Translations under genes and position numbers: made by a program
Notes under the pieces: model-generated
What the model saw: the letters and a program-made list of their open reading frames with translations, nothing else
What the model was told of the DNA's origin: nothing
Databases searched by the model: none
Shown: positions 45,186-59,724 of the stretch, in pieces
Layout: each line of letters opens with the position of its first letter
Numbering within the stretch: the first letter of the stretch is position 1
NCBI RefSeq assembly: GCF_947494015.1
Contig: NZ_CANLTL010000004.1
Span: 240,291-304,290 of the forward strand
Reading direction: 5' to 3'
Source of the DNA: an uncultured Cellulomonas sp.
GTDB taxonomy: Bacteria; Actinomycetota; Actinomycetes; Actinomycetales; Cellulomonadaceae
DNA length: 64,000 bases

Positions 45186-45752
45186 TCATCCTCTCGCCGG
45201 TGTCGGCGACGGCCAGGCCGCCACGAGCCGGGCGTGCGTGTCACCGAGCAGCTCGGGCAGCGCCTTGGTGCGGCCGACGATCGGCAGGAAGTTCGCGTCC
45301 CCGCCCCACCGCGGCACCACGTGCTGGTGCAGGTGGGCGGCGATGCCTGCTCCGGCGACGGTGCCCTGGTTCATCCCCAGGTTGAACCCGTGCGGCGCCG
45401 ACACCTTCCGCAGCACGCGCATCGCCGTCTGGGTGAGCGTGGCGACCTCGGTGGTCTCCTGCGCGGTCAGCTCGGGATAGCCGGCGACGTGGCGGTACGG
45501 CAGCACCATGAGGTGGCCGGGGTTGTAGGGGTAGAGGTTCAGCACGACGTAGGCCACCGCGCCGCGCGCGACGACCAGCGCCTCGACGTCGTCGAGCGTG
45601 GGCGCACGGCAGAACGGGCACGCGTCCCCGGCCGAGGCGTCCGCGGGCTTGTCCTGCCCGCCGATGTACACCATGCGGTGCGGCGTCCACAGCCGCTCGA
45701 ACCCGTCCGGCTCGCCGGGGTGCTCCCCGGCGACCTCGTCCCCCACCGACAT
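45186..45752 (-). CDS. HIT family protein
   Basis: CPFCRAP...LYPYNPGHLMVLPYRHVAGY...HLHQHVVPRWGGD. Confidence 0.95.
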   Translation of the reverse strand: MSVGDEVAGEHPGEPDGFERLWTPHRMVYIGGQDKPADASAGDACPFCRAPTLDDVEALVVARGAVAYVVLNLYPYNPGHLMVLPYRHVAGYPELTAQETTEVATLTQTAMRVLRKVSAPHGFNLGMNQGTVAGAGIAAHLHQHVVPRWGGDANFLPIVGRTKALPELLGDTHARLVAAWPSPTPARG

Positions 45753-47764
45753 CAGACCTGGGCCCGCTCGCGGACCGCGGACACGATCCGCTGCACGGCC
45801 TCGGCGACCGGCACGGCGTTGTCCTGGCGACCGTCGCGGTACCGGAACGACACCGCGCCGGCGTCGACGTCGTCGCCGCCGGCGATCAGCACGAACGGGA
45901 TCTTCTGGGTGCTGGCGGTGCGGATCTTCTTGCCGAACCGGTCGTCGGAGACGTCGAGCTCGGCGCGGATGCCCTGCGCGCGCAGCTGCGCGACGACGTC
46001 GGCCAGGTAGTCGTTGAACGGCTCGGCGACCGGCACCGCGACGACCTGGACCGGGGCGAGCCACGCCGGGAACGCACCGGCGTAGTGCTCGGTGAGGACG
46101 GCGAAGAACCGCTCGATCGACCCGAACAACGCCCGGTGGATCATCACCGGGCGCTGCCGGCTGCCGTCCGAGGCGGTGTACTCCAGGTCGAACAGCTCGG
46201 GCAGGTTGAAGTCGAGCTGGATCGTCGACATCTGCCACGTGCGCCCGATGGCGTCCTTGGCCTGCACGGAGATCTTCGGCCCGTAGAACGCCGCGCCGCC
46301 CGGGTCCGGCACCAGGTCCAGGCCCGACGCCGTCGCGACCTCGCGCAGCGTCTCGGTGGCCTCCTCCCACACCTCGTCCGACCCCACGGACTTGTCCGGG
46401 TTGCGGGTGGACAGCTCGAGGTAGAAGTCCTCCAGGCCGTAGTCCCGGAGCAGGTCGAGGACGAACCGGAGCAGGCTCGCGAGCTCGTCGCGCATCTGCT
46501 CACGGGTGCAGTAGATGTGCGCGTCGTCCTGCGTGAACCCGCGCGCGCGGGTCATGCCGTGCACGACGCCGGACTTCTCGTACCGGTACACCGTGCCGAA
46601 CTCGAACAGCCGCAGCGGCAGCTCCCGGTAGGACCGGCCACGCGACCGGAAGACCAGGTTGTGCATCGGGCAGTTCATCGGCTTGAGGTAGTAGTTCTGC
46701 CCGGGGCGGCGCACCGTCCCGTCCTCGTCCAGCTCGGCGTCCAGCTGCATGGGCGGGTACATGCCCTCGGAGTACCAGTCGAGGTGCCCGGAGAGCTGGA
46801 ACAGCCCCTCCTTGGTGATGTGCGGGGTGTTGACGAAGGAGTACCCGCCCTCGACGTGGCGTCGTCGGGAGTAGTCCTCCATCTCCATCCGCACGATGCC
46901 GCCCTTGGGGTGGAACACGGCCAGGCCGGAGCCGATCTCGTCCGGGAAGGAGAACAGGTCGAGCTCGTTGCCCAGCCGGCGGTGGTCGCGCCGCTCCGCC
47001 TCGGCCAGGCGCTCGAGGTGGGCGCGCAGCTCGTCCTTCGTGGGCCAGGCGGTGCCGTACACGCGCTGCAGCTGCGGGTTCTTCTCCGACCCGCGCCAGT
47101 ACGCGGCGGCCGAGCGGGTGAGCTGGAAGCCGTTGGCGATGAGCCGGGTGCTGGGCAGGTGCGGGCCGCGGCACAGGTCCTGCCAGGCGACCGTGCCGTC
47201 ACGCTTGACGTTCTGGTAGATGCTCAGGCCGCCCAGGCCCACCTCGACGGAGGACGAGTCCTCGTCGTTCGTGGTGCCCTTCAGGCCGATGAGCTCGAGC
47301 TTGTACGGCTCGCCGGCGAGCTCGGTCCGCGCCTCGTCCTCGGTGACGTCCCACCGGCGGAAGGTCTGGCCCTCCTTGACGATGCGCTGCATCGCCTTCT
47401 CCAGCGCCTTGAGGTCCTCGGGGGTGAACGGCGTGTCCACGTCGAAGTCGTAGTAGAAGCCGTCGGTGATGGGCGGGCCGATGCCGAGCTTGGCGGTCGG
47501 GTTGATCTCCTGCACGGCCTGCGCGAGCACGTGGGCGGTCGAGTGCCGCAGCACGGCCAGCCCGTCCGGGGAGTCGATGGTGACGGCCTCGACGACCTCG
47601 CCGTCGGCGACCGGCAGGTGCAGGTCGCGCAGCTCGCCGTCCACCCGGACGACGACGACGTCGCGCCGCTGGCCGTACAGGTCGGCCGCCGTGGCACCCG
47701 CCTCGACCGTGACCTCGGCGCCGTCGACGGTGAGGGTGAGGGTCTGGGCGGACGGTGCCGACAC
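45752..47764 (-). CDS. thrS: Threonyl-tRNA synthetase
   Basis: TGS domain + class II core; [24 protein letters not shown]. Confidence 0.97.
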
Positions 47765-47846
47765 GGGGTCTCCTGCTGGTCGAGGGGTGCTCGGGCTGCG
47801 CCCGGTCCGGACGCAGCGACGATGCTACCGAGGCGGGCGGGCCGGC

Positions 47847-47884
47847 CCGACGCCGGCCCGACGCCGGACCGACGCCGGACCGAC
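47847..47884. repeat. 11-bp tandem repeat upstream of thrS
   Basis: CCGACGCCGGC/CCGACGCCGGA/CCGACGCCGGA/CCGAC. Confidence 0.85.
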
Positions 47885-47929
47885 CAGGGGCCGGGCGGCG
47901 ACCGGGCCCGTCCGCATGCGCCCGCGGGA

Positions 47930-50770
47930 TCACAGCAGCACGCTGGCGCCCACCCGGTACAGCTCGAGCCGGTCCCGGCCCTCGGCGAGGCGCACCACCC
48001 GGTCCCCGAGGCGCACCGCGTGCGCGAACCACGGCACCGCGTCGTAGCGGGCGACCTCACGCACGCCGTCCGGTCCGGTGACCAGGACCCGTGCCGTGCC
48101 GTCGTCGAGGGTGGCCAGCACGGCCGCCGGATCGACGAACGGCGTGTGCGCGAGCGAGACGACGGCGGCGTCCTGGACGTCGAGCCGCTGCCCGTCGGGC
48201 GATCCACCGGTCACCGCGCCGGTCGGCACGCCGGTCACCGTGCCGGTCACCGCTGCGCCGGCCACCGCTCCGCCGCGCAGCATGACGCCGTGCCGGTCCC
48301 CCACCAGGAGCCGGCCCCGGGCGTGCGCGGCCGTGATGGCTCCGGCCGCCTGGATCTCGTCGCGGATCTCGAGGGTCGGGGACAGCACGAGCACCCGGTC
48401 GCGGGTGACGGCGACCACCCCCTCCGCCCCGACCGTGGCATCCCGGACCGGGACGTCGACCACGGTCCGGGTCAGCCGACCCGACCGGTCGACGACGGCC
48501 AAGCCGTCGTCGCCGTAGAGCAGCAGCCCGTGCGCCGACCTCAGCGCCCCGCTGAACCGGCCCGGCCAGGTCCGCTCGGCCGCTGCCGGTGAGGGCGACG
48601 TGACGGCGTACGCGACGGCCCGGTCGTCCAGCAGCGCGACGACGCCGGGCGCACCGGACACCGGGACCACGTCGATGCCGCGAGCCCGGCCGGGCAGCCG
48701 GACGACGCCCTCGTGGACCAGGTTGGTCTGCCGGACCTCCAGGCCGCCCGGGCCGGGGTCCGCCGTGACGTCGACCGTCCCGGACTGCACCGACCACCCC
48801 GGGGCGTCGAGGCGCCGGATGCCCAGCTCGCGGTCCTCGCCGCTGGGAGCCACGACCGTGGTGAGGTGCACGGGGTCACCGGTGCTGACCGCGGTGACCA
48901 CCGCGCTGCCGTCGCGGTCGACCAGCCGGGCGGCCTGCCCCGCCGGCAGGCCCGAGACGACGACGTCCCACAGGTGCTCGACCCGGGAGCCGTCCTCCGG
49001 TGGCCGCGGTGACCACCGGGGGTTGTAGCCGACGTGGGTGCCGAGCCACGGGTCGACGAGCTGCTGGCAGTCTGCGACGGCGGCGAGCAGCTCGGCGCCG
49101 AGCGCCTGGAACCGGGCAGCGTCGACCACCGGCAGCGCGGCGAACCGCAGCAGCCGCGTGCCCCCGCTGGTCCGCACCATCAGGTCGATCGGGTAGGGGG
49201 CGGCGTAGTAACCCGGGCCGGGTGCGGCGACGTCGACCGACAGGTCCAGGGGCGGCTGGCCGTCGCCGACGCTCACATCGGCCGGGGTGACGGCGCCGCC
49301 GGGACGGTCGAGCGACACGGGACCGCACAGCGACAGCGGGGCGGTCCCCCTGTTGCCGATCCAGGCCCGGGCGTGCAGCACCCGGAACCGGGAGTGGTCG
49401 TCGTAGAAGGCGGCCACGAGCGCCATCGAGGCAGGACCGCACGACACCCGCGGTGCGGCGATCGCGAACTCGGTGTGCTCGATCAGGGGCACCGCCGAGG
49501 TCAGCTCGGTCGTCGACATGCTGCCCGCGAGCGCCACCCCGTCGGGCAGGGCGAGCAGGGTCGTCACCTGGCTCCGCAGAGAGCCGGGGACGGTCGGGAC
49601 CGCGACGGCCTGGCTGACACGCAGGGTGGTCGGGGAGGTCTGCTCGACGTCCAGGCCGGCGTCGTCGAGCGCCTCGACCGCTGCCGAGCCGGCGAACCGC
49701 AGGATCAGCTCCTCGGCGGGGACGCCGAAGAGGCGGATCACCGAGAGCGCGAAGGTGCTGACGAACCCCCGCACCTCGGTGATGCGCGAGAAGTCGATGT
49801 CGACGCTCAGGGTGCCCGGTGCGGTGACCGCCGGGCGCAGCACGACGTGCGGCTCCGCCTGGACCGTGAGGTCGAGGTCGAGCTCCTGCACCTCGACCGC
49901 GTGGAAGATCAGCAGCGCGCTGACGTCGAGCACCGCCCGGCCGCCCTCGACGCGGTACGTGCAGTCCGGGTAGGCGTCGAGGGCGTCGTCGCGGGGCAGG
50001 CTGCTGCCCAGGACCGCCTTCGCCGACTCGGTGAGATAGCCCGCCTCGACGAACAGCGACCAGTCGTTGCCCTGCCGCCGGTCGACGGCGTGACCGCTGT
50101 AGAAGGTGGTCCACGGGCCGTAGGAGTACCAGCTGGACCCGCCGACCTGGATCCGGACCGCGAGGGTCTGCCCACCGGCCGCCAGGGCCAGGCCGGCGTT
50201 GAGGAACCGGATGCCCCGGCGCAGCCCCGCCAGTCCCATCGGGACCGTGCCGGACGGTGCGAGCACGCGCACCCGGTCGGTGACGAACCCCCGGATCTGC
50301 GCCAGCACCTCGGGCGGCAGGCTCGCCGGCAGCGGCGCCGGGAGCGGGGGGACGACGACGTCGACGGCGCCCAGGTCGGCGCGCAGGTAGCACTCGTCCG
50401 GGAGTGCGTAGGCGCTGAGCTCGAAGGTCACGACCACCTCCACCGCGACGAGCCGTGGTGACTCGTTCGGGTGCGCGCGGACGTCCGCCTCCGTGGTGAG
50501 CTGGAGGACGAGGTGCTGCTCGAGCAGGACGGGGAAGCCCGTCGCCGGGTGGTCGGTCGCGCGGACCTCGCCGTGGTCCTCCAGGAAGACGGCGAACTCG
50601 GTCTCCGGCCCGCGGCGCAGGTGGCTGGCCTCGACGTCGATGCGGTCGATGACGATCTGCACACCCGCCGCCGCAGGGAGCACCGGCGGGCACAGCGCCG
50701 ACGAGCGCAGGAGGTTGCGCTGGGCGACGAGGAAGCGATCCGTCGCGATCTGGAACTCGAACAGGGACAT
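47930..50770 (-). CDS. Large uncharacterised protein (946 aa), beta-rich with possible propeller-like C-terminus
   Basis: Long intact ORF with normal high-GC codon pattern; no recognisable catalytic motif, no signal peptide or TM apparent. Confidence 0.85.
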   Translation of the reverse strand: MSLFEFQIATDRFLVAQRNLLRSSALCPPVLPAAAGVQIVIDRIDVEASHLRRGPETEFAVFLEDHGEVRATDHPATGFPVLLEQHLVLQLTTEADVRAHPNESPRLVAVEVVVTFELSAYALPDECYLRADLGAVDVVVPPLPAPLPASLPPEVLAQIRGFVTDRVRVLAPSGTVPMGLAGLRRGIRFLNAGLALAAGGQTLAVRIQVGGSSWYSYGPWTTFYSGHAVDRRQGNDWSLFVEAGYLTESAKAVLGSSLPRDDALDAYPDCTYRVEGGRAVLDVSALLIFHAVEVQELDLDLTVQAEPHVVLRPAVTAPGTLSVDIDFSRITEVRGFVSTFALSVIRLFGVPAEELILRFAGSAAVEALDDAGLDVEQTSPTTLRVSQAVAVPTVPGSLRSQVTTLLALPDGVALAGSMSTTELTSAVPLIEHTEFAIAAPRVSCGPASMALVAAFYDDHSRFRVLHARAWIGNRGTAPLSLCGPVSLDRPGGAVTPADVSVGDGQPPLDLSVDVAAPGPGYYAAPYPIDLMVRTSGGTRLLRFAALPVVDAARFQALGAELLAAVADCQQLVDPWLGTHVGYNPRWSPRPPEDGSRVEHLWDVVVSGLPAGQAARLVDRDGSAVVTAVSTGDPVHLTTVVAPSGEDRELGIRRLDAPGWSVQSGTVDVTADPGPGGLEVRQTNLVHEGVVRLPGRARGIDVVPVSGAPGVVALLDDRAVAYAVTSPSPAAAERTWPGRFSGALRSAHGLLLYGDDGLAVVDRSGRLTRTVVDVPVRDATVGAEGVVAVTRDRVLVLSPTLEIRDEIQAAGAITAAHARGRLLVGDRHGVMLRGGAVAGAAVTGTVTGVPTGAVTGGSPDGQRLDVQDAAVVSLAHTPFVDPAAVLATLDDGTARVLVTGPDGVREVARYDAVPWFAHAVRLGDRVVRLAEGRDRLELYRVGASVLL

Positions 50771-50800
50771 GGGGCGTCCTGGGCAGCCGGACCGGTGGGC

Positions 50801-51082
50801 TCAGCGGACCGGCAGGTCCGGCGGCTCGGGCGGCAGGGGCTGCGGGTTGAGCTCCGCCAGGATCTCGCCGACGTCGAAGACGATCCACCCCCGGCGACGC
50901 CCGCCGACGACGATGATCGACACCTCGTCGGCGCCGTCGGCCCCGAGCGGCGGCTCCTCACGGACCTCCAGCGGGGTCCCGGCGACGACGGCCTCGAGCA
51001 CGTCGGCCTGCTCGGGCGGCATCGAGTCGAACAGCTCCTGCAGTCGCGACTGCACGGCGCGCACATCCGTGGACCGGGCCAT
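50801..51082 (-). CDS. Small protein with LNPQPLPPEPPDLP C-terminal motif
   Basis: MARSTDVRAVQSRLQELFDSMPPEQADVLEAVVAGTPLEVREEPPLGADGADEVSIIVVGGRRRGWIVFDVGEILAELNPQPLPPEPPDLPVR; 30-bp gap to downstream large ORF. Confidence 0.82.
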   Translation of the reverse strand: MARSTDVRAVQSRLQELFDSMPPEQADVLEAVVAGTPLEVREEPPLGADGADEVSIIVVGGRRRGWIVFDVGEILAELNPQPLPPEPPDLPVR

Positions 51083-51336
51083 GATCCGCCTCCATCGAAC
51101 GCCGGCGGCCAGCACAGGCGCGGCCTGTCTCGACGTACCACCATGCTGCTCGCACGGCTGCCGGCGGCACCAGGCAATTTGTCCCGGGGTCTGCGCCGCG
51201 GTGCGAGGCGGTTGCGGTGCGACGTCACGGCGAAGCCGGGCACCGCGTCCGGTGCGGCGGATGGCCGCCGGTGCGCAGCGACGCGGGGAACACGAACGGG
51301 CCAGGTCCCGAGAGGGACCTGACCCGTGGGTGAGGG

Positions 51337-51408
51337 TGGGCGATACTGGGTTCGAACCAGTGACCTCCTCGGTGTGAACGAGGCGCTCTACCACTGAGCC
51401 AATCGCCC
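51337..51408 (-). tRNA. tRNA-Val(CAC)
   Basis: GGGCGATTGGCTCAGTGGTAGAGCGCCTCGTTCACACCGAGGAGGTCACTGGTTCGAACCCAGTATCGCCCA cloverleaf. Confidence 0.96.
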
Positions 51409-54538: not shown

Positions 54539-54610
54539 GGGCGATTGGCGCAGCGGTAGCGCGCTTCCCTGACACGGAAGAGGTCACTGGTTCGATCCCA
54601 GTATCGCCCA
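54539..54610 (+). tRNA. tRNA-Val(GAC), probable integration target
   Basis: GGGCGATTGGCGCAGCGGTAGCGCGCTTCCCTGACACGGAAGAGGTCACTGGTTCGATCCCAGTATCGCCCA. Confidence 0.97.
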
Positions 54611-54631
54611 CCAGCACCACCGCAGGTCAGG

Positions 54632-54659
54632 GGCCGTTTCGGAGAGATCCGGGACGGCC
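54632..54659 (+). terminator. Hairpin downstream of tRNA-Val
   Basis: GGCCGT-tt-CGGA-gaga-TCCG-gg-ACGGCC followed by TTT. Confidence 0.55.
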
Positions 54660-54681
54660 TTTGTGCTGCCCAACCGGCTTC

Positions 54682-54701
54682 GCTAGTCAAACTGCTAGTC
54701 A
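54682..54701. repeat. GCTAGTCA direct repeat at integrase 3' end (candidate arm-type site)
   Basis: GCTAGTCA-AACT-GCTAGTCA, 12-bp periodicity, second copy includes int stop codon. Confidence 0.5.
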
Positions 54702-55858
54702 TCGGTGTGCCCCCCGTCCGAGCCGAAGATGTCGTCCATCGCCCGAGCGCCGCGGGTGAGCACCGGCCGGAGCTCCTTGCGGTACACCGTCTCGGTCACC
54801 TTCGTGCTGGCATGACCGACCAGGTGGGCGATGTCCTCGATCGGCACCCCCGAGCTGGACATGACCGAGACGAAGCTGTGCCGCAGCTCCCGCGGGGTCC
54901 AGTCCTCCGCAGGCAGCCCCGCGGCCGCCACGACGGCTCTGAACCCCCGCCGGACGTTCGCCGCGTCCAGGGGCGTCCCGGTCCGGCTGGCGAACACGAG
55001 GCCATGCTCGCGCCATCGCTCCCCCGCCTCCCGTCGCCACGTCTCCTGCAGCTCGCGGTGCGTGCGGAGAGCGACGACTGCCCGAACGGGTAGCTCGATG
55101 GTTCGGCGCGACCGCCGTGTCTTCGTGTCTCCGTCACTCCGCACCGAACGCCACAGCTCCACGGTGGGCGGCACGTCGGGAGGTCGCCCCTCGAGGTCGA
55201 CGTGCTCCCATCGCAGAGCCCGCAGCTCCTCTGTCCTGGCCCCGGTCAGCAGCGACACCACGACGTACGCGTGCATCGGTGAGCGCTCCGACGCCGTGAT
55301 GACCCGCTTCGCCTGTTGCAGGGTGAGCGACTTGGAGGGCCGGCCCACCTGACCTCGAGGCACGTCGCACAGCAGTGCGACATTCCGACCGACGAGATCA
55401 CGTGCTTCCGCTCGCCGGATCGACATCCTCAAGATCGACAGAAGGCGCTTCACCGTGTCGGTGCTCAGAACCTCAGCCCGACCCGCCAGCCAGGTCTCCA
55501 CCTCTGCGGCGGTCAACGCGCTCAGACGTCTCGCACCGAGCTCGGGGAGCACGTGTGTGATGGCGAGGCTTCGGCGGTTCGCCACCGTGCTATCCCCTCG
55601 GCCGACAAGGCCGTGGTCGAGCCACGACTCGACGGCCTCGCGAACGGTGTACGCGTGTCGCTCGGCCGCGAGTCCGGCGTCCTGCACGCGCTGCGCGTCG
55701 CGGAGCTTCGCCCGGACCTCCGTCTTGGTGCGGCCGCTGATCCACTTAACGCGTCGCTTCCCGTTCGGCCAGTACCCCAGTGAGACGAGCCCGACCCAGC
55801 GTTGGCGCGACTCGTTCCAGTAGAGGCTGCCCTCGCCGTAGCTACGCCGCGCGCCCAC
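54695..55858 (-). CDS. int: Tyrosine recombinase/integrase
   Basis: LTGARTEELRALRWEHVD, ELRHSFVSVMSSSGVPIEDIAHLVGHASTKVTETVYRKEL catalytic R..HxxR..Y. Confidence 0.95.
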   Translation of the reverse strand: MGARRSYGEGSLYWNESRQRWVGLVSLGYWPNGKRRVKWISGRTKTEVRAKLRDAQRVQDAGLAAERHAYTVREAVESWLDHGLVGRGDSTVANRRSLAITHVLPELGARRLSALTAAEVETWLAGRAEVLSTDTVKRLLSILRMSIRRAEARDLVGRNVALLCDVPRGQVGRPSKSLTLQQAKRVITASERSPMHAYVVVSLLTGARTEELRALRWEHVDLEGRPPDVPPTVELWRSVRSDGDTKTRRSRRTIELPVRAVVALRTHRELQETWRREAGERWREHGLVFASRTGTPLDAANVRRGFRAVVAAAGLPAEDWTPRELRHSFVSVMSSSGVPIEDIAHLVGHASTKVTETVYRKELRPVLTRGARAMDDIFGSDGGHTDD

Positions 55859-56087
55859 CGTCGCCGCCCGCCGCTCGCATGAGCTCCGCCACGTAGTCGT
55901 CGATCGCCGCTCTGGGCACCAGCCGTCGACGACCGACGGTCACCGTCACCAGCCGACGCGACCTGATCAGCTCGTACAGCTGGGTCCGGCTCAGGTTGAG
56001 CAGCGCCATCGTCTCGGGCACGTCGTACAGCACACGCCCGGGCGTCACCCCCTGCGGCATCAGTGTTGAACCCTTACTCACTGCCAT
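55842..56087 (-). CDS. xis: Excisionase / HTH DNA-binding protein
   Basis: VPETMALLNLSRTQLYELIRSRRLVTVTVGRRRLVPRAAIDDYVAELM MerR-like HTH. Confidence 0.9.
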   Translation of the reverse strand: MAVSKGSTLMPQGVTPGRVLYDVPETMALLNLSRTQLYELIRSRRLVTVTVGRRRLVPRAAIDDYVAELMRAAGGDGGRAA

Positions 56088-57721
56088 CGCCCCCGCTCTC
56101 GTTCGGTCCGCTCCTCTGCCGAAAGACTGTCCACAGCCGCCACGGGCGGGCCGGCACGCTGACAGACAGCGGCGCCGACCATGACCTCACGCGCCCGTTC
56201 GTACTCCGCACGCCACCGCCGCGCCTCGACGACGCTGCCCATCACGACGCGGGCGTAGTCGAGCGCGGACACGGGGACGTCCTGCCAGGTGTAGCGGGGA
56301 AGCCCATCCGTGTGGAGGACCTCCGCTGCCATCCGTTCCGCCGCGGGCGCCTCGATACCGGCGGCCTGAAGCGCCGCTCGGACGACGGCGGCACGGTCCG
56401 CCCGGTGCTCGGTCAAGGTCTTCCCCGACCAGCTCCGCGAGACAAGCACCCGCCGCCCACCGACCCCGAGGTGCTCCCGGTCGTGCGCCTTCGCTGGGCA
56501 TCGCCCCGGCACGAGTCCGGGCCCGGCGTTGTACGGCTGGACTCCGAAGCGGAGCCAGTTCGCGCACTCCTTGGAGCAGGGCAGCCAGCGGACCTCGTGG
56601 TGCAAACGGTCGATATGGGCCTCATAGGCGACGTCCACCGCGTCGTCATCGGCGTACGTCTCCGCGACCGCCTTAGTGAGGTACTTCGTCAGGTACCGCA
56701 CCGCGCGATCGGCGTCCGGAGTCCCGCCGACGATGCCCTTGATGTCGACCTGCGAGCCGAGCCGCATGACGTGCGCAGGTCTCGTGCCCGGCAGTTCGTC
56801 GCCGAGGGCGTCGACGGCCTGCTGCCAGGTCGGCAGCGCCATACCGGTGTCCGGGTCGCGGTAGTCGGCGCCATCCCACACCGGGAGGCGGTGGTCGTAC
56901 ACCGGGGTCTCCATCTGCGGCCACCACAGCTGAAAGTACGTGGCTTTCGTGACAGCCCTGAGGGTGGCTCTCGGGATCGCGCCACGGATGGCGACGTGGA
57001 AGTGCGGCGCGAGGCGGCGTTGCGCCTCCACAGCACCGAAGTACTGCGCCCTGTAGCCCGCGCAGCGGCGCAGGTTCTGCACCCACCGATCCAGCAGCTT
57101 CGAGAAGTGGAGAGCATCCAACGCGGCACGACGGTAGTCGTACCGAGCTGGGTCGACCGGCGCGCCGGTGAACGGGCGGACCTTGCCGTACGACGGAAGT
57201 GTCAGCGTCACGAACATCGACGGCTGGTACATCTTGCCGTCGGGAGCCGTGAAGGTCCGGCCGACGGTCCGGTTCTCGACCGGACGAGTGGGCAGGTCCG
57301 GAGCGTCGGCGCGGCGACGGGTCGACCGCGTCTGACGCGCAACCTCGTCGCCAACGTCCTCTTGCTCGCCGGCGTCGTTCTCCTCGGCCGGGCAGCTGTC
57401 GGGGCCGCCCGCGTGCTCCACCGTGGCGGGATCCACGGCAGGCTCGACGGCGGCGTGCCAGCCCTCCGCGCACTGCGTCATCCGTAGGCGGCGCGCGTTG
57501 GACGCGCAGCTCGGGCATCGGGACTCGCGAGTCGATCCGCACCGGATCGCGACCGTGGTGACGACCCCGGTGGCACGGTCGGTGACCCGCCGGACGACAG
57601 GACGAACACAGACCGCCTGCTCGATCGCCAACTCACGCACCACGTCGTCGCCGATAGCCGGCCTGCTGGCGCGTCCCGATGCGAGCGCCGGAGCGCGCCG
57701 CTCGGCAAGGAGAGTCGTCAT
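56078..57721 (-). CDS. repSA: Rolling-circle replication initiator, RepSA-like
   Basis: MFVTLTLPSYGKV, PHFHVAIRGAIPR (HUH), RYLTKYLTKAVAETY; CxxC N-terminal region. Confidence 0.9.
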   Translation of the reverse strand: MTTLLAERRAPALASGRASRPAIGDDVVRELAIEQAVCVRPVVRRVTDRATGVVTTVAIRCGSTRESRCPSCASNARRLRMTQCAEGWHAAVEPAVDPATVEHAGGPDSCPAEENDAGEQEDVGDEVARQTRSTRRRADAPDLPTRPVENRTVGRTFTAPDGKMYQPSMFVTLTLPSYGKVRPFTGAPVDPARYDYRRAALDALHFSKLLDRWVQNLRRCAGYRAQYFGAVEAQRRLAPHFHVAIRGAIPRATLRAVTKATYFQLWWPQMETPVYDHRLPVWDGADYRDPDTGMALPTWQQAVDALGDELPGTRPAHVMRLGSQVDIKGIVGGTPDADRAVRYLTKYLTKAVAETYADDDAVDVAYEAHIDRLHHEVRWLPCSKECANWLRFGVQPYNAGPGLVPGRCPAKAHDREHLGVGGRRVLVSRSWSGKTLTEHRADRAAVVRAALQAAGIEAPAAERMAAEVLHTDGLPRYTWQDVPVSALDYARVVMGSVVEARRWRAEYERAREVMVGAAVCQRAGPPVAAVDSLSAEERTERERGRWQ

Positions 57722-59205
57722 GCCGCGCTCCGCGTCTCTGCTGCCGTCATGTCCGCCGACGTCCCGTACTCCGCGACGAGCGCGTCGATGTGTTGGTCGG
57801 TGAAGTGCGGGAACCGCACGCGCAGAGGTTCAGCGACCCCCTCGATGCCGACGTACCCGGTCCCGGGCATGGACTCAGCGATCCGGTCGCACCGAGCTCC
57901 GCGATCGCGCGCTCCCGCTCCGAGCACCAGCGCGACCTGGTCAGCCTCCGACAATCGCAGGGCGATCCTGGTCGGGAACAGGTCCCGGACAGTGACAACC
58001 TCTTTGCGGGGATCTTGAACGGCGCCGACCACGCTCACACCCACCGCGCGGCCCTGCGACAGCAGCAGCGACAGCGCCGCACCGATACGTCGCTTCGCTT
58101 CCCGATCGGTGATGTACGCGGTGAGGTTTGCCAGCTCGTCGATCAGGACCACGATCAGCGGCTCCTCCTCCGTCGGGCTGTGGAGTCGGGTGATCCCCCG
58201 CAGGCGTGCCTGGCGTCGCCGCATGATCGAGACGGCGTCCTCCAACGCCCGCGCGAACTCGATCTCGTAGTCGCCGCCGTCATCCGGATCGCCGTAGACG
58301 AATCGGTCGAACAGCGGCCTCCCCGCGGCCAGCTCCATGCCACCCTTCGGGTCGAGCGCCCACACCCGGGCCGTGCGGTCGCGGATGGCCGGCGCCAGGC
58401 CCGCGACGATGGCCCAGAGAACCGACCCCTTGCCCGATCCCGTTGCACCGACCACGAGCACATGACTTCCGAGAAGGCGAAGCCGATAGCGCCGTCCGTC
58501 CTCTTGGACAGCAACGGCCAGCGCCGCGGCGTCCGAGGTGCGGGACCGAAACGGTGAGACCTCCGCCAGGAGCATGTCTGCCACAAGAAGCCAGAGCTCG
58601 AGGTCTCGGCTCCGTCCGGGAACGGTGCGAACTCGACACTCCGGCACGCCGAAGGTCTGCGCCAGGCGTGGAGCTCGACCAGTCCAGTCCTCGAGGACCT
58701 GGCCTGCGAGCATCCGCACGCGTACTCGGTCCACACCAGCCCGACTGCGCACGCCGACCAGCGCCGGTAGCCGCCGCTCCCCGTTGATGCCGGCGTCAAG
58801 TCCCGTCGTCACCATGGCGGTTTCCCAGGCGGGGCGGTACACGCGCGCCGACCGCCACGAGCCGGCTATGCGCTCCGTCACCCAGGCGGAGAAGGTTTCC
58901 GGCGCCCGGAGTCGCCACGTCGCGAGAAGCGCGGCGCTGATCGCCGCTCCCACGGCGAGGGCGCCAACGCCGTGCTTGGTCGCCATCCACACGACGACGG
59001 CCACCACCACACTCCCCGCCCCGAATCGGCGGTGACGCGACACCCAGCGCATCGCGCCAAATATTTGGCGCAGCGCCACCCGGGCAGCGCGGAGGCTCAG
59101 TGGAACCAGCCGCACCAGTGCGGCCAACGCCGAGCCGGCCATCACGCACAGTGCGACGACGCCGATGGCCCACACGGCGCCTACGCCACCTTGGTTGAGA
59201 ACGAC
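57718..59205 (-). CDS. FtsK/SpoIIIE-like conjugative dsDNA translocase, TraSA-like (start uncertain)
   Basis: LVVGATGSGKGSVLWAI Walker A, LIVVLIDELANL Walker B; two N-terminal hydrophobic segments. Confidence 0.9.
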   Translation of the reverse strand, partial: VVLNQGGVGAVWAIGVVALCVMAGSALAALVRLVPLSLRAARVALRQIFGAMRWVSRHRRFGAGSVVVAVVVWMATKHGVGALAVGAAISAALLATWRLRAPETFSAWVTERIAGSWRSARVYRPAWETAMVTTGLDAGINGERRLPALVGVRSRAGVDRVRVRMLAGQVLEDWTGRAPRLAQTFGVPECRVRTVPGRSRDLELWLLVADMLLAEVSPFRSRTSDAAALAVAVQEDGRRYRLRLLGSHVLVVGATGSGKGSVLWAIVAGLAPAIRDRTARVWALDPKGGMELAAGRPLFDRFVYGDPDDGGDYEIEFARALEDAVSIMRRRQARLRGITRLHSPTEEEPLIVVLIDELANLTAYITDREAKRRIGAALSLLLSQGRAVGVSVVGAVQDPRKEVVTVRDLFPTRIALRLSEADQVALVLGAGARDRGARCDRIAESMPGTGYVGIEGVAEPLRVRFPHFTDQHIDALVAEYGTSADMTAAETRSAA

Positions 59206-59633
59206 GTGCTGGAAGCACTCTTCGCCGATGCCATCCCGTCGGCACGGAATGACCACGCCGACTGGGCCCGACAGCGGTGCGGCCTCCCTGGCTCCGGGGC
59301 GGCGCAACGCGACGAGTCGACCCATGGCGTCGCCGTGAGGTTCTCGAAGATCACCAGGGTGAACGGAGACGCCCCGTCGTTGGCCGGCGGCACCGGCTGG
59401 TGCTTCGCCGCGATCTTGACCGTAACGGTCTTGGACTTCTTCGGCGCGTCCGGATCGGCATCCAGCACGTCGACCGACCAGACCGGCAGACCGCTGTCCT
59501 TGTCGACGTCCTGCACCTTCGTCTCCCGAGTCGACTTCTCGAAGTCGTGCACGGGCGTTACCTCCGAGACGAGGTACGCACCCATCGGGAAGACGTCGTT
59601 GTGAGCGACCTTGAACCTGCGTGCCAGTGCCAT
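59181..59633 (-). CDS. Pra-like plasmid replication/integration/excision activator
   Basis: RFKVAHNDVFPMGAYLVSEVTPVHDFEKSTRETKVQDVDKDSGLPVWSVDVLDADPDAPKKSKTVTVKIAAKHQPVPP, typical of AICE Pra family. Confidence 0.82.
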   Translation of the reverse strand: MALARRFKVAHNDVFPMGAYLVSEVTPVHDFEKSTRETKVQDVDKDSGLPVWSVDVLDADPDAPKKSKTVTVKIAAKHQPVPPANDGASPFTLVIFENLTATPWVDSSRCAAPEPGRPHRCRAQSAWSFRADGMASAKSASSTSFSTKVA

Positions 59634-59724
59634 TGCGTTCCCCTTCCGCGGCCAGAGCCCCAGCGGCTCAGGACCATGGGACTGCTCGCCGCCAGGACGA
59701 GAACACCGCATGGAGGGACGTTTT

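What the first reader, a model, noticed from the sequence alone, without database searches (positions are those of the whole stretch)
47930..51082. Uncharacterised two-gene unit: LNPQPLPP small protein plus 946-aa orphan protein
A 93-aa protein ends in LNPQPLPPEPPDLP and sits 30 bp upstream of a 946-aa protein on the same strand, so it is very likely co-transcribed. The large protein has no motif I can assign. It appears beta-rich, lacks an evident signal peptide or TM, and its C-terminal third has repeated short hydrophobic strands suggestive of a beta-propeller. I recall the NPQPLPP string recurring in other hypothetical proteins but know no function for it. The pair sits between conserved thrS and tRNA-Val, so it could be an accessory insertion at a conserved locus.
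Basis: partly seen in the sequence, partly recalled or inferred. Interest (0 to 1): 0.72.

Follow-up and report, generated by a model that had tools for sequence, protein, structure and literature searches.

The report
Orphan gene pair in variable slot
Next to a tRNA gene in an actinobacterium sits a rare pair of genes, a big protein ending in a propeller-shaped domain and a small one carrying a recurring proline-rich tag; the big one belongs to a scattered, undescribed family, and what the pair does is only inferred.

Summary
Neither matches Pfam, NCBIfam or PADLOC. The large protein founds an undescribed, sporadic family. Seven members were found: this one, Microbacterium saccharophilum, one genome of the same family, plasmids of Paraburkholderia, Rhodococcus and Mesorhizobium, and a distant member, G193. 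They share collinear motifs (invariant Q7, R206, W237, C444, G475, G537, C568). Its C-terminus is a predicted WD40/BamB-like propeller. Its N-terminal 430 residues look TULIP-like (lipid-binding tube), but the model is poor and no match is significant. The pair occupies a variable slot: in three of four congeners thrS and tRNA-Val(CAC) adjoin with nothing between, and in the fourth two crcB genes sit there. The pair as such is not conserved. The small protein has no homologue found, and five of six relatives lack an LNPQPLPP gene; only G193 carries LNPQPLPP, inside its own C-terminal region. The motif recurs in unrelated actinobacterial proteins (13/297 genomes, against 1/297 for a scrambled version), but not in viral contigs. 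Best guess: a leaderless hydrophobic-ligand binder with a propeller dock, plus a small proline-motif partner.

The parts
47930..50770 (-). Large gene, 946 aa: N-terminal TULIP-like region (about residues 1-430, inferred), Ig-like region (about 435-660, inferred from sequence), C-terminal beta-propeller (about 680-946)
   Evidence: Open frame. Full-length 42% relative L002. Seven-member family alignment with invariant Q7, R206, W237, P392, G416, C444, G475, G537, C568. AlphaFold2/Foldseek propeller. N-terminal model poor; TULIP proteins among top but non-significant hits.
50801..51082 (-). Small gene, 93 aa, ending LNPQPLPPEPPDLPVR; 30 bp upstream of the large gene, same strand
   Evidence: Codon-position GC 0.82/0.46/0.95. 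GGAGG about 6 nt before ATG. No credible homologue found.
50814..50851 (-). Codons of the LNPQPLPP motif and following EPP in the small gene (approximate)
   Evidence: sequence. Motif recurs in 13/297 class genomes against 1/297 for a composition-matched swap.
47899..51307 (.). Lineage-specific insertion between the conserved thrS leader and the conserved tRNA-Val(CAC) end (approximate bounds from where alignments to congeners stop)
   Evidence: blastn of the window against four congeners: alignments stop at 47832-47898 on the thrS side and resume at 51308-51335 on the tRNA side; tRNA positions.
51335..51408 (-). tRNA-Val (CAC), upstream conserved flank
   Evidence: ARAGORN; same tRNA next to thrS in four congeners.
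45752..47764 (-). thrS (threonyl-tRNA synthetase), downstream conserved flank
   Evidence: 83-88% identical orthologues in four congeners.

Best explanation
The large gene encodes a leaderless, soluble, multi-domain protein of a rare, mobile, undescribed family. Most likely its N-terminal half is a TULIP-like tube that binds a lipid or other hydrophobic ligand, followed by an Ig-like module and a C-terminal beta-propeller that docks partners. The small co-directional gene most likely makes an adaptor whose C-terminal LNPQPLPP polyproline tail engages the large protein or a third partner; in the distant member G193 the same motif is carried in cis. Shown: gene structure, family, propeller, insertion site, motif recurrence. 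Inferred: co-transcription, TULIP fold, ligand, docking, and any interaction between the two proteins.
For: Seven-member family with collinear invariant residues. Confident propeller at about 680-825 and 895-940; Foldseek hits to WD40 proteins and BamB, E from 4e-6. N-terminal order is helix, long strands, helix. TULIP was proposed from sequence before the fold search (note). In the N-terminal search BPI is rank 1 and 3, BSP30b rank 10, OrfX1-OrfX3 rank 23 and P47 rank 24 of 350,542 chains, though none is significant. Bacterial TULIPs P47/OrfX2 give no significant HHsearch hit outside their own group (PMC6791001), so silence of the sequence libraries is not telling. G193 carries LNPQPLPP inside a family member; leave-one-out HMM E 9e-6 and 9e-4, against 0.11 and 0.05 for the next unrelated protein. 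Tight gene spacing; G985 also has a coupled upstream partner gene (4-bp overlap).
Against: N-terminal model pLDDT 38, pTM 0.29, and no Foldseek hit below E 0.4, so the TULIP fold is unproven. The upstream partner differs: P0002 here, an unrelated 270-aa protein in G985, none in L002. P0002 has no homologue, so the pairing cannot be tested by co-evolution. The propeller is absent or reduced in some members. No interaction data exist.
Confidence: 0.3

Rival explanations
1. The two genes are neighbours by accident. The large gene is a stand-alone accessory gene and the small gene a young orphan with a generic proline-rich tail; LNPQPLPP in G193 is coincidence or a shared linker.
For: No P0002 homologue. 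Most relatives of the large protein lack the motif gene. Motif proteins mostly stand alone with unrelated neighbours.
Against: 30-bp same-strand spacing. Both genes arrive together in a slot that is otherwise empty or differently filled. A motif found in about 4% of genomes falling by chance in another member of so rare a family is unlikely.
Confidence: 0.35
2. The large protein is exported cargo or an effector-complex component, comparable to the leaderless TULIP proteins OrfX/P47, and the small gene is its chaperone or accessory.
For: No signal peptide in members. The Paraburkholderia member lies about 600 bp downstream of an hcp (type VI tube/effector) gene. TULIP-like top hits include OrfX and P47. 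Rare and plasmid-borne.
Against: No Pfam P47 match even at E 10. No toxin gene or injection-system gene beside the window copy or L002. The hcp link is one case.
Confidence: 0.15
3. A defence or toxin-immunity pair in a variable slot.
For: Sporadic, variable locus, small gene plus large gene.
Against: No PADLOC match and no significant PHROGs match; no nuclease, protease or toxin motif; the small partner is not conserved; the fourth congener fills the same slot with fluoride-channel genes.
Confidence: 0.07
4. An environmental-response or surface-chemistry accessory protein acting with oxidative or proteolytic enzymes.
For: The M. saccharophilum member is divergent from a 1486-aa protein with an HEVGHALGFDD zinc-protease-like motif; the G193 member is a few genes from a tyrosinase.
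Against: Different neighbours each time; no such gene beside the window copy.
Confidence: 0.08

Closest known systems
WD40/BamB-type beta-propellers
   Same: C-terminal about 260 residues predicted as repeated four-stranded blades; Foldseek hits PAN2, PALB2, WDR91, DDB1, BamB
   Different: Only about 10-14% identity, no Pfam match; fused to a large non-propeller region and absent or reduced in some relatives
TULIP lipid-binding superfamily (BPI, and bacterial P47/OrfX2, YceB, DUF2140, DUF2993, DUF4403)
   Same: Predicted helix and long-strand order; BPI, BSP30b, OrfX and P47 among the top Foldseek hits of a weak model; leaderless like P47
   Different: No significant structural or sequence match; longer, with Ig-like and propeller parts
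Proline-rich short linear motifs in general (SH3, WW or EVH1 ligands)
   Same: Short proline-rich motif near a chain end or linker in unrelated proteins
   Different: No described receptor for LNPQPLPP is known to me; the held open-text library has no paper containing NPQPLPP
tRNA-adjacent genomic islands
   Same: Insertion lies directly beyond the 3' end of tRNA-Val(CAC)
   Different: Only two genes, no integrase, no direct repeat of the tRNA end found

Membership tests
WD40/BamB-like propeller (C-terminal domain) | Toroid of repeated four-stranded antiparallel blades | tested here: met
   AlphaFold2 pLDDT mostly 70-89 over 680-820 and 900-940; many propellers with Foldseek E < 1e-3. Blade number not settled.
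TULIP superfamily (N-terminal region) | Long helix wrapped by a curved antiparallel sheet with a hydrophobic cavity | tested here: inconclusive
   Model pLDDT 38; BPI, BSP30b, OrfX, P47 in the top 24 but E >= 0.4.
TULIP superfamily (N-terminal region) | Lipid or hydrophobic ligand binding | not testable with these tools
   Needs a biochemical assay.
P47/OrfX family | Sequence match to the curated family | tested here: not met
   No Pfam or NCBIfam hit at E up to 10. It is not filed as a member.
P47/OrfX family | orfX-p47 cluster with toxin genes | tested here: not met
   Window neighbours are thrS, tRNA-Val and pabC-like genes.
Anti-phage defence system | Match to a known defence protein | tested here: not met
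   PADLOC none.
tRNA-targeted island | Integrase and duplicated tRNA 3' end | tested here: not met
   No integrase between thrS and tRNA; no such repeat.
Conserved two-gene operon | Both genes co-occur adjacently in other genomes | tested here: not met
   P0002 homologue absent in 58 relatives (its one weak hit rejected) and plasmids; five of six other family loci lack the motif. G193 has the motif in cis.

The most novel reading that the evidence does not exclude
LNPQPLPP (often V-x-LNPQPLPP) is a portable bacterial short linear motif with a dedicated, undescribed receptor. The large-protein family is a propeller-plus-TULIP machine that uses it, supplied in trans by the 93-aa partner here and in cis in G193.
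Probability: 0.08. Interest if true: 0.75.

Novelty: new variant of a known kind. Interest (0 to 1): 0.38.

Why it matters
It defines a protein family absent from the curated libraries searched, spread thinly over actinobacterial chromosomes and proteobacterial and Rhodococcus plasmids, with residues that let it be recognised. If the N-terminus is a TULIP, it would be a new architecture of bacterial lipid-binding protein. Separately, a recurring eight-residue motif in unrelated actinobacterial proteins with no known binder is a concrete, testable oddity.

Tried and rejected
A P0002 hit in G056 is a spurious antisense frame inside another ORF. LNPQPLPP in IMG/VR contigs is at the level of the swapped control (15 against 19), so those hits were not used. 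A class-wide hit in G263 (E 4.8e-4, in-frame stop) was treated as chance. P0002 against six-frame translations gave only weak hits carried by proline runs or the motif. A search with the alignment in viral contigs found no relatives. A PDB sequence search gave nothing relevant. No flanking direct repeat or integrase was found. No sigma-70 promoter or terminator match was found in the interval; not informative at 74% GC. Folding the N-terminal half alone did not improve confidence. An attempt to centre the genome search on the plasmid record L008 was not accepted.

Full report
Two genes lie on the minus strand between thrS (45752-47764) and tRNA-Val(CAC) (51335-51408): a 93-aa gene at 50801-51082 and, 30 bp downstream of it, a 946-aa gene at 47930-50770. 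Both have coding-like codon-position composition (0.82/0.46/0.95 and 0.78/0.51/0.95). Neither matches Pfam or NCBIfam even at E 10, nor PADLOC; PHROGs gives nothing for the large protein and only a chance-level hit (E 0.62) for the small one.

The large protein belongs to a real but rare family. The only full-length close relative found is in Microbacterium saccharophilum (42% identity). Between the two, 909 aligned codons differ at 0.40/0.38/0.52 of first, second and third positions. Plasmid searches gave distant members in Mesorhizobium, Paraburkholderia phymatum and Rhodococcus ruber. A search of 222 genomes of the same family gave one more, G985. None was found in 58 close relatives, and no convincing member in 394 other class genomes or 296 other phylum genomes; only two or three candidates per genome were scored in the larger searches, so distant members can be missed (G193 itself was in the class sample and was missed). 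This seventh, more diverged member (G193) came in through the motif search. It scores E 9e-6 (five-row model) or 9e-4 (six-row model) in leave-one-out HMM searches, against 0.11 and 0.05 for the best unrelated protein. It shares the same ordered landmarks: the T-x-A-D-L/V-x-A-H-P-N segment, the W-containing helix motif, Cys, LCG, V-x-T-x-x-G-x-R, and C...W. In the seven-row alignment Q7, R206, W237, P392, G416, C444, G475, G537 and C568 are invariant. In Mesorhizobium the N-terminal part, and in Paraburkholderia the C-terminal part, is encoded by a separate gene.

Domains. AlphaFold2 on the two-sequence alignment is confident only in the C-terminal third, which is a beta-propeller, with moderate confidence at about 590-640. 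Foldseek matches WD40 proteins and BamB from E 4e-6. The 435-660 region reads as Ig-like by sequence (for example GNRGTAPLSLC); this is inference. The N-terminal 430 residues could not be modelled well (pLDDT 38). I had guessed TULIP from the strand and helix order before the fold search (note). In that search BPI ranks 1 and 3, BSP30b 10, OrfX1-OrfX3 23 and P47 24 of 350,542 chains, but the best E-value is only 0.4. This is suggestive, not proof. Known bacterial TULIPs P47/OrfX2 give no significant HHsearch hit outside their own group (PMC6791001).

Locus. In the four other species of the genus, thrS and tRNA-Val(CAC) are likewise neighbours. In three the junction is empty; in the fourth two crcB (fluoride channel) genes sit there. 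Alignment to the window stops at 47832-47898 and resumes at 51308-51335. The pair is therefore a lineage-specific gain, or the survivor of losses, at a variable slot beside a tRNA 3' end. There is no integrase and no flanking repeat.

The small protein and its motif. P0002 has no homologue in 58 relatives or in plasmids. The motif itself recurs: LNPQPLPP in 13 of 297 class genomes, against 1 of 297 for the composition- and degeneracy-matched swap LQPNPLPP. The read-backwards controls of the two patterns matched 1 and 4 genomes. The 13 collapse to about five protein families: P0002; a roughly 160-aa family with DDWC(G/P)TxxP...KWP; the G193 homologue; proline-rich membrane proteins; and an RDD-like membrane protein. 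A sixth family, about 740 aa, occurs in the window's own genus and family. Four of the six families share Val at position -2. A 48% identical member of the 160-aa family found by homology, not by motif, keeps LNPQPLPP. Viral contigs show no enrichment (15 against 19). So the motif is probably under selection in several proteins, but by family the numbers are small.

Is the pair a unit? Of six other family members, none has a separate NPQPLPP gene nearby and one (G193) has the motif inside its own C-terminal region. G985 does have an upstream gene overlapping by 4 bp, but it is a different protein without the motif.

Verdict. A real, undescribed, sporadic protein family with a C-terminal propeller and a possibly TULIP-like N-terminus, accompanied here by an orphan small protein carrying a recurring proline-rich motif, in a variable chromosomal slot. 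Function is inferred only. Genome-scale searches are limited by the sampled collections, and metagenomes could not be scanned.

Noticed in passing
window 54539-59700: tRNA-Val(GAC) at 54539-54613 is followed by a tyrosine-recombinase fragment, a helix-turn-helix excisionase-like gene and an FtsK-like gene, which looks like an actinomycete integrative element.
   Followed up: no
L002:886-5346: 1486-aa protein with HEVGHALGFDD (M6-like zinc protease motif), no Pfam match, divergent neighbour of the large-protein homologue in Microbacterium saccharophilum.
   Followed up: partly
L024:8479-10698 and L025:8332-10554: About 740-aa duplicated-domain protein with LNPQPLPP in the linker between its two halves, in the window's genus and family; no Pfam family.
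   Followed up: partly
L026:7010-7471, L028:7243-7740, L029:7549-8040, L030:7480-7971, L087:1501-1965: Widespread roughly 160-aa actinobacterial family with LNPQPLPP and a DDWC segment followed by a PxxWP-rich stretch; no Pfam family; stand-alone genes.
   Followed up: partly
L014-L019: Membrane proteins with PPPGGYPPP N-terminal tails that end in LNPQPLPPGPPP or similar.
   Followed up: no
L078:6431-7335: Two tandem crcB genes occupy the same thrS-tRNA-Val(CAC) slot in a congener.
   Followed up: yes
L084:10102-10914: 270-aa protein with a Cys-rich start, overlapping the G985 large-gene homologue by 4 bp; no Pfam family.
   Followed up: partly
L008:9683-10153: hcp gene about 600 bp upstream of the Paraburkholderia family member on plasmid pBPHY02.
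   Followed up: partly
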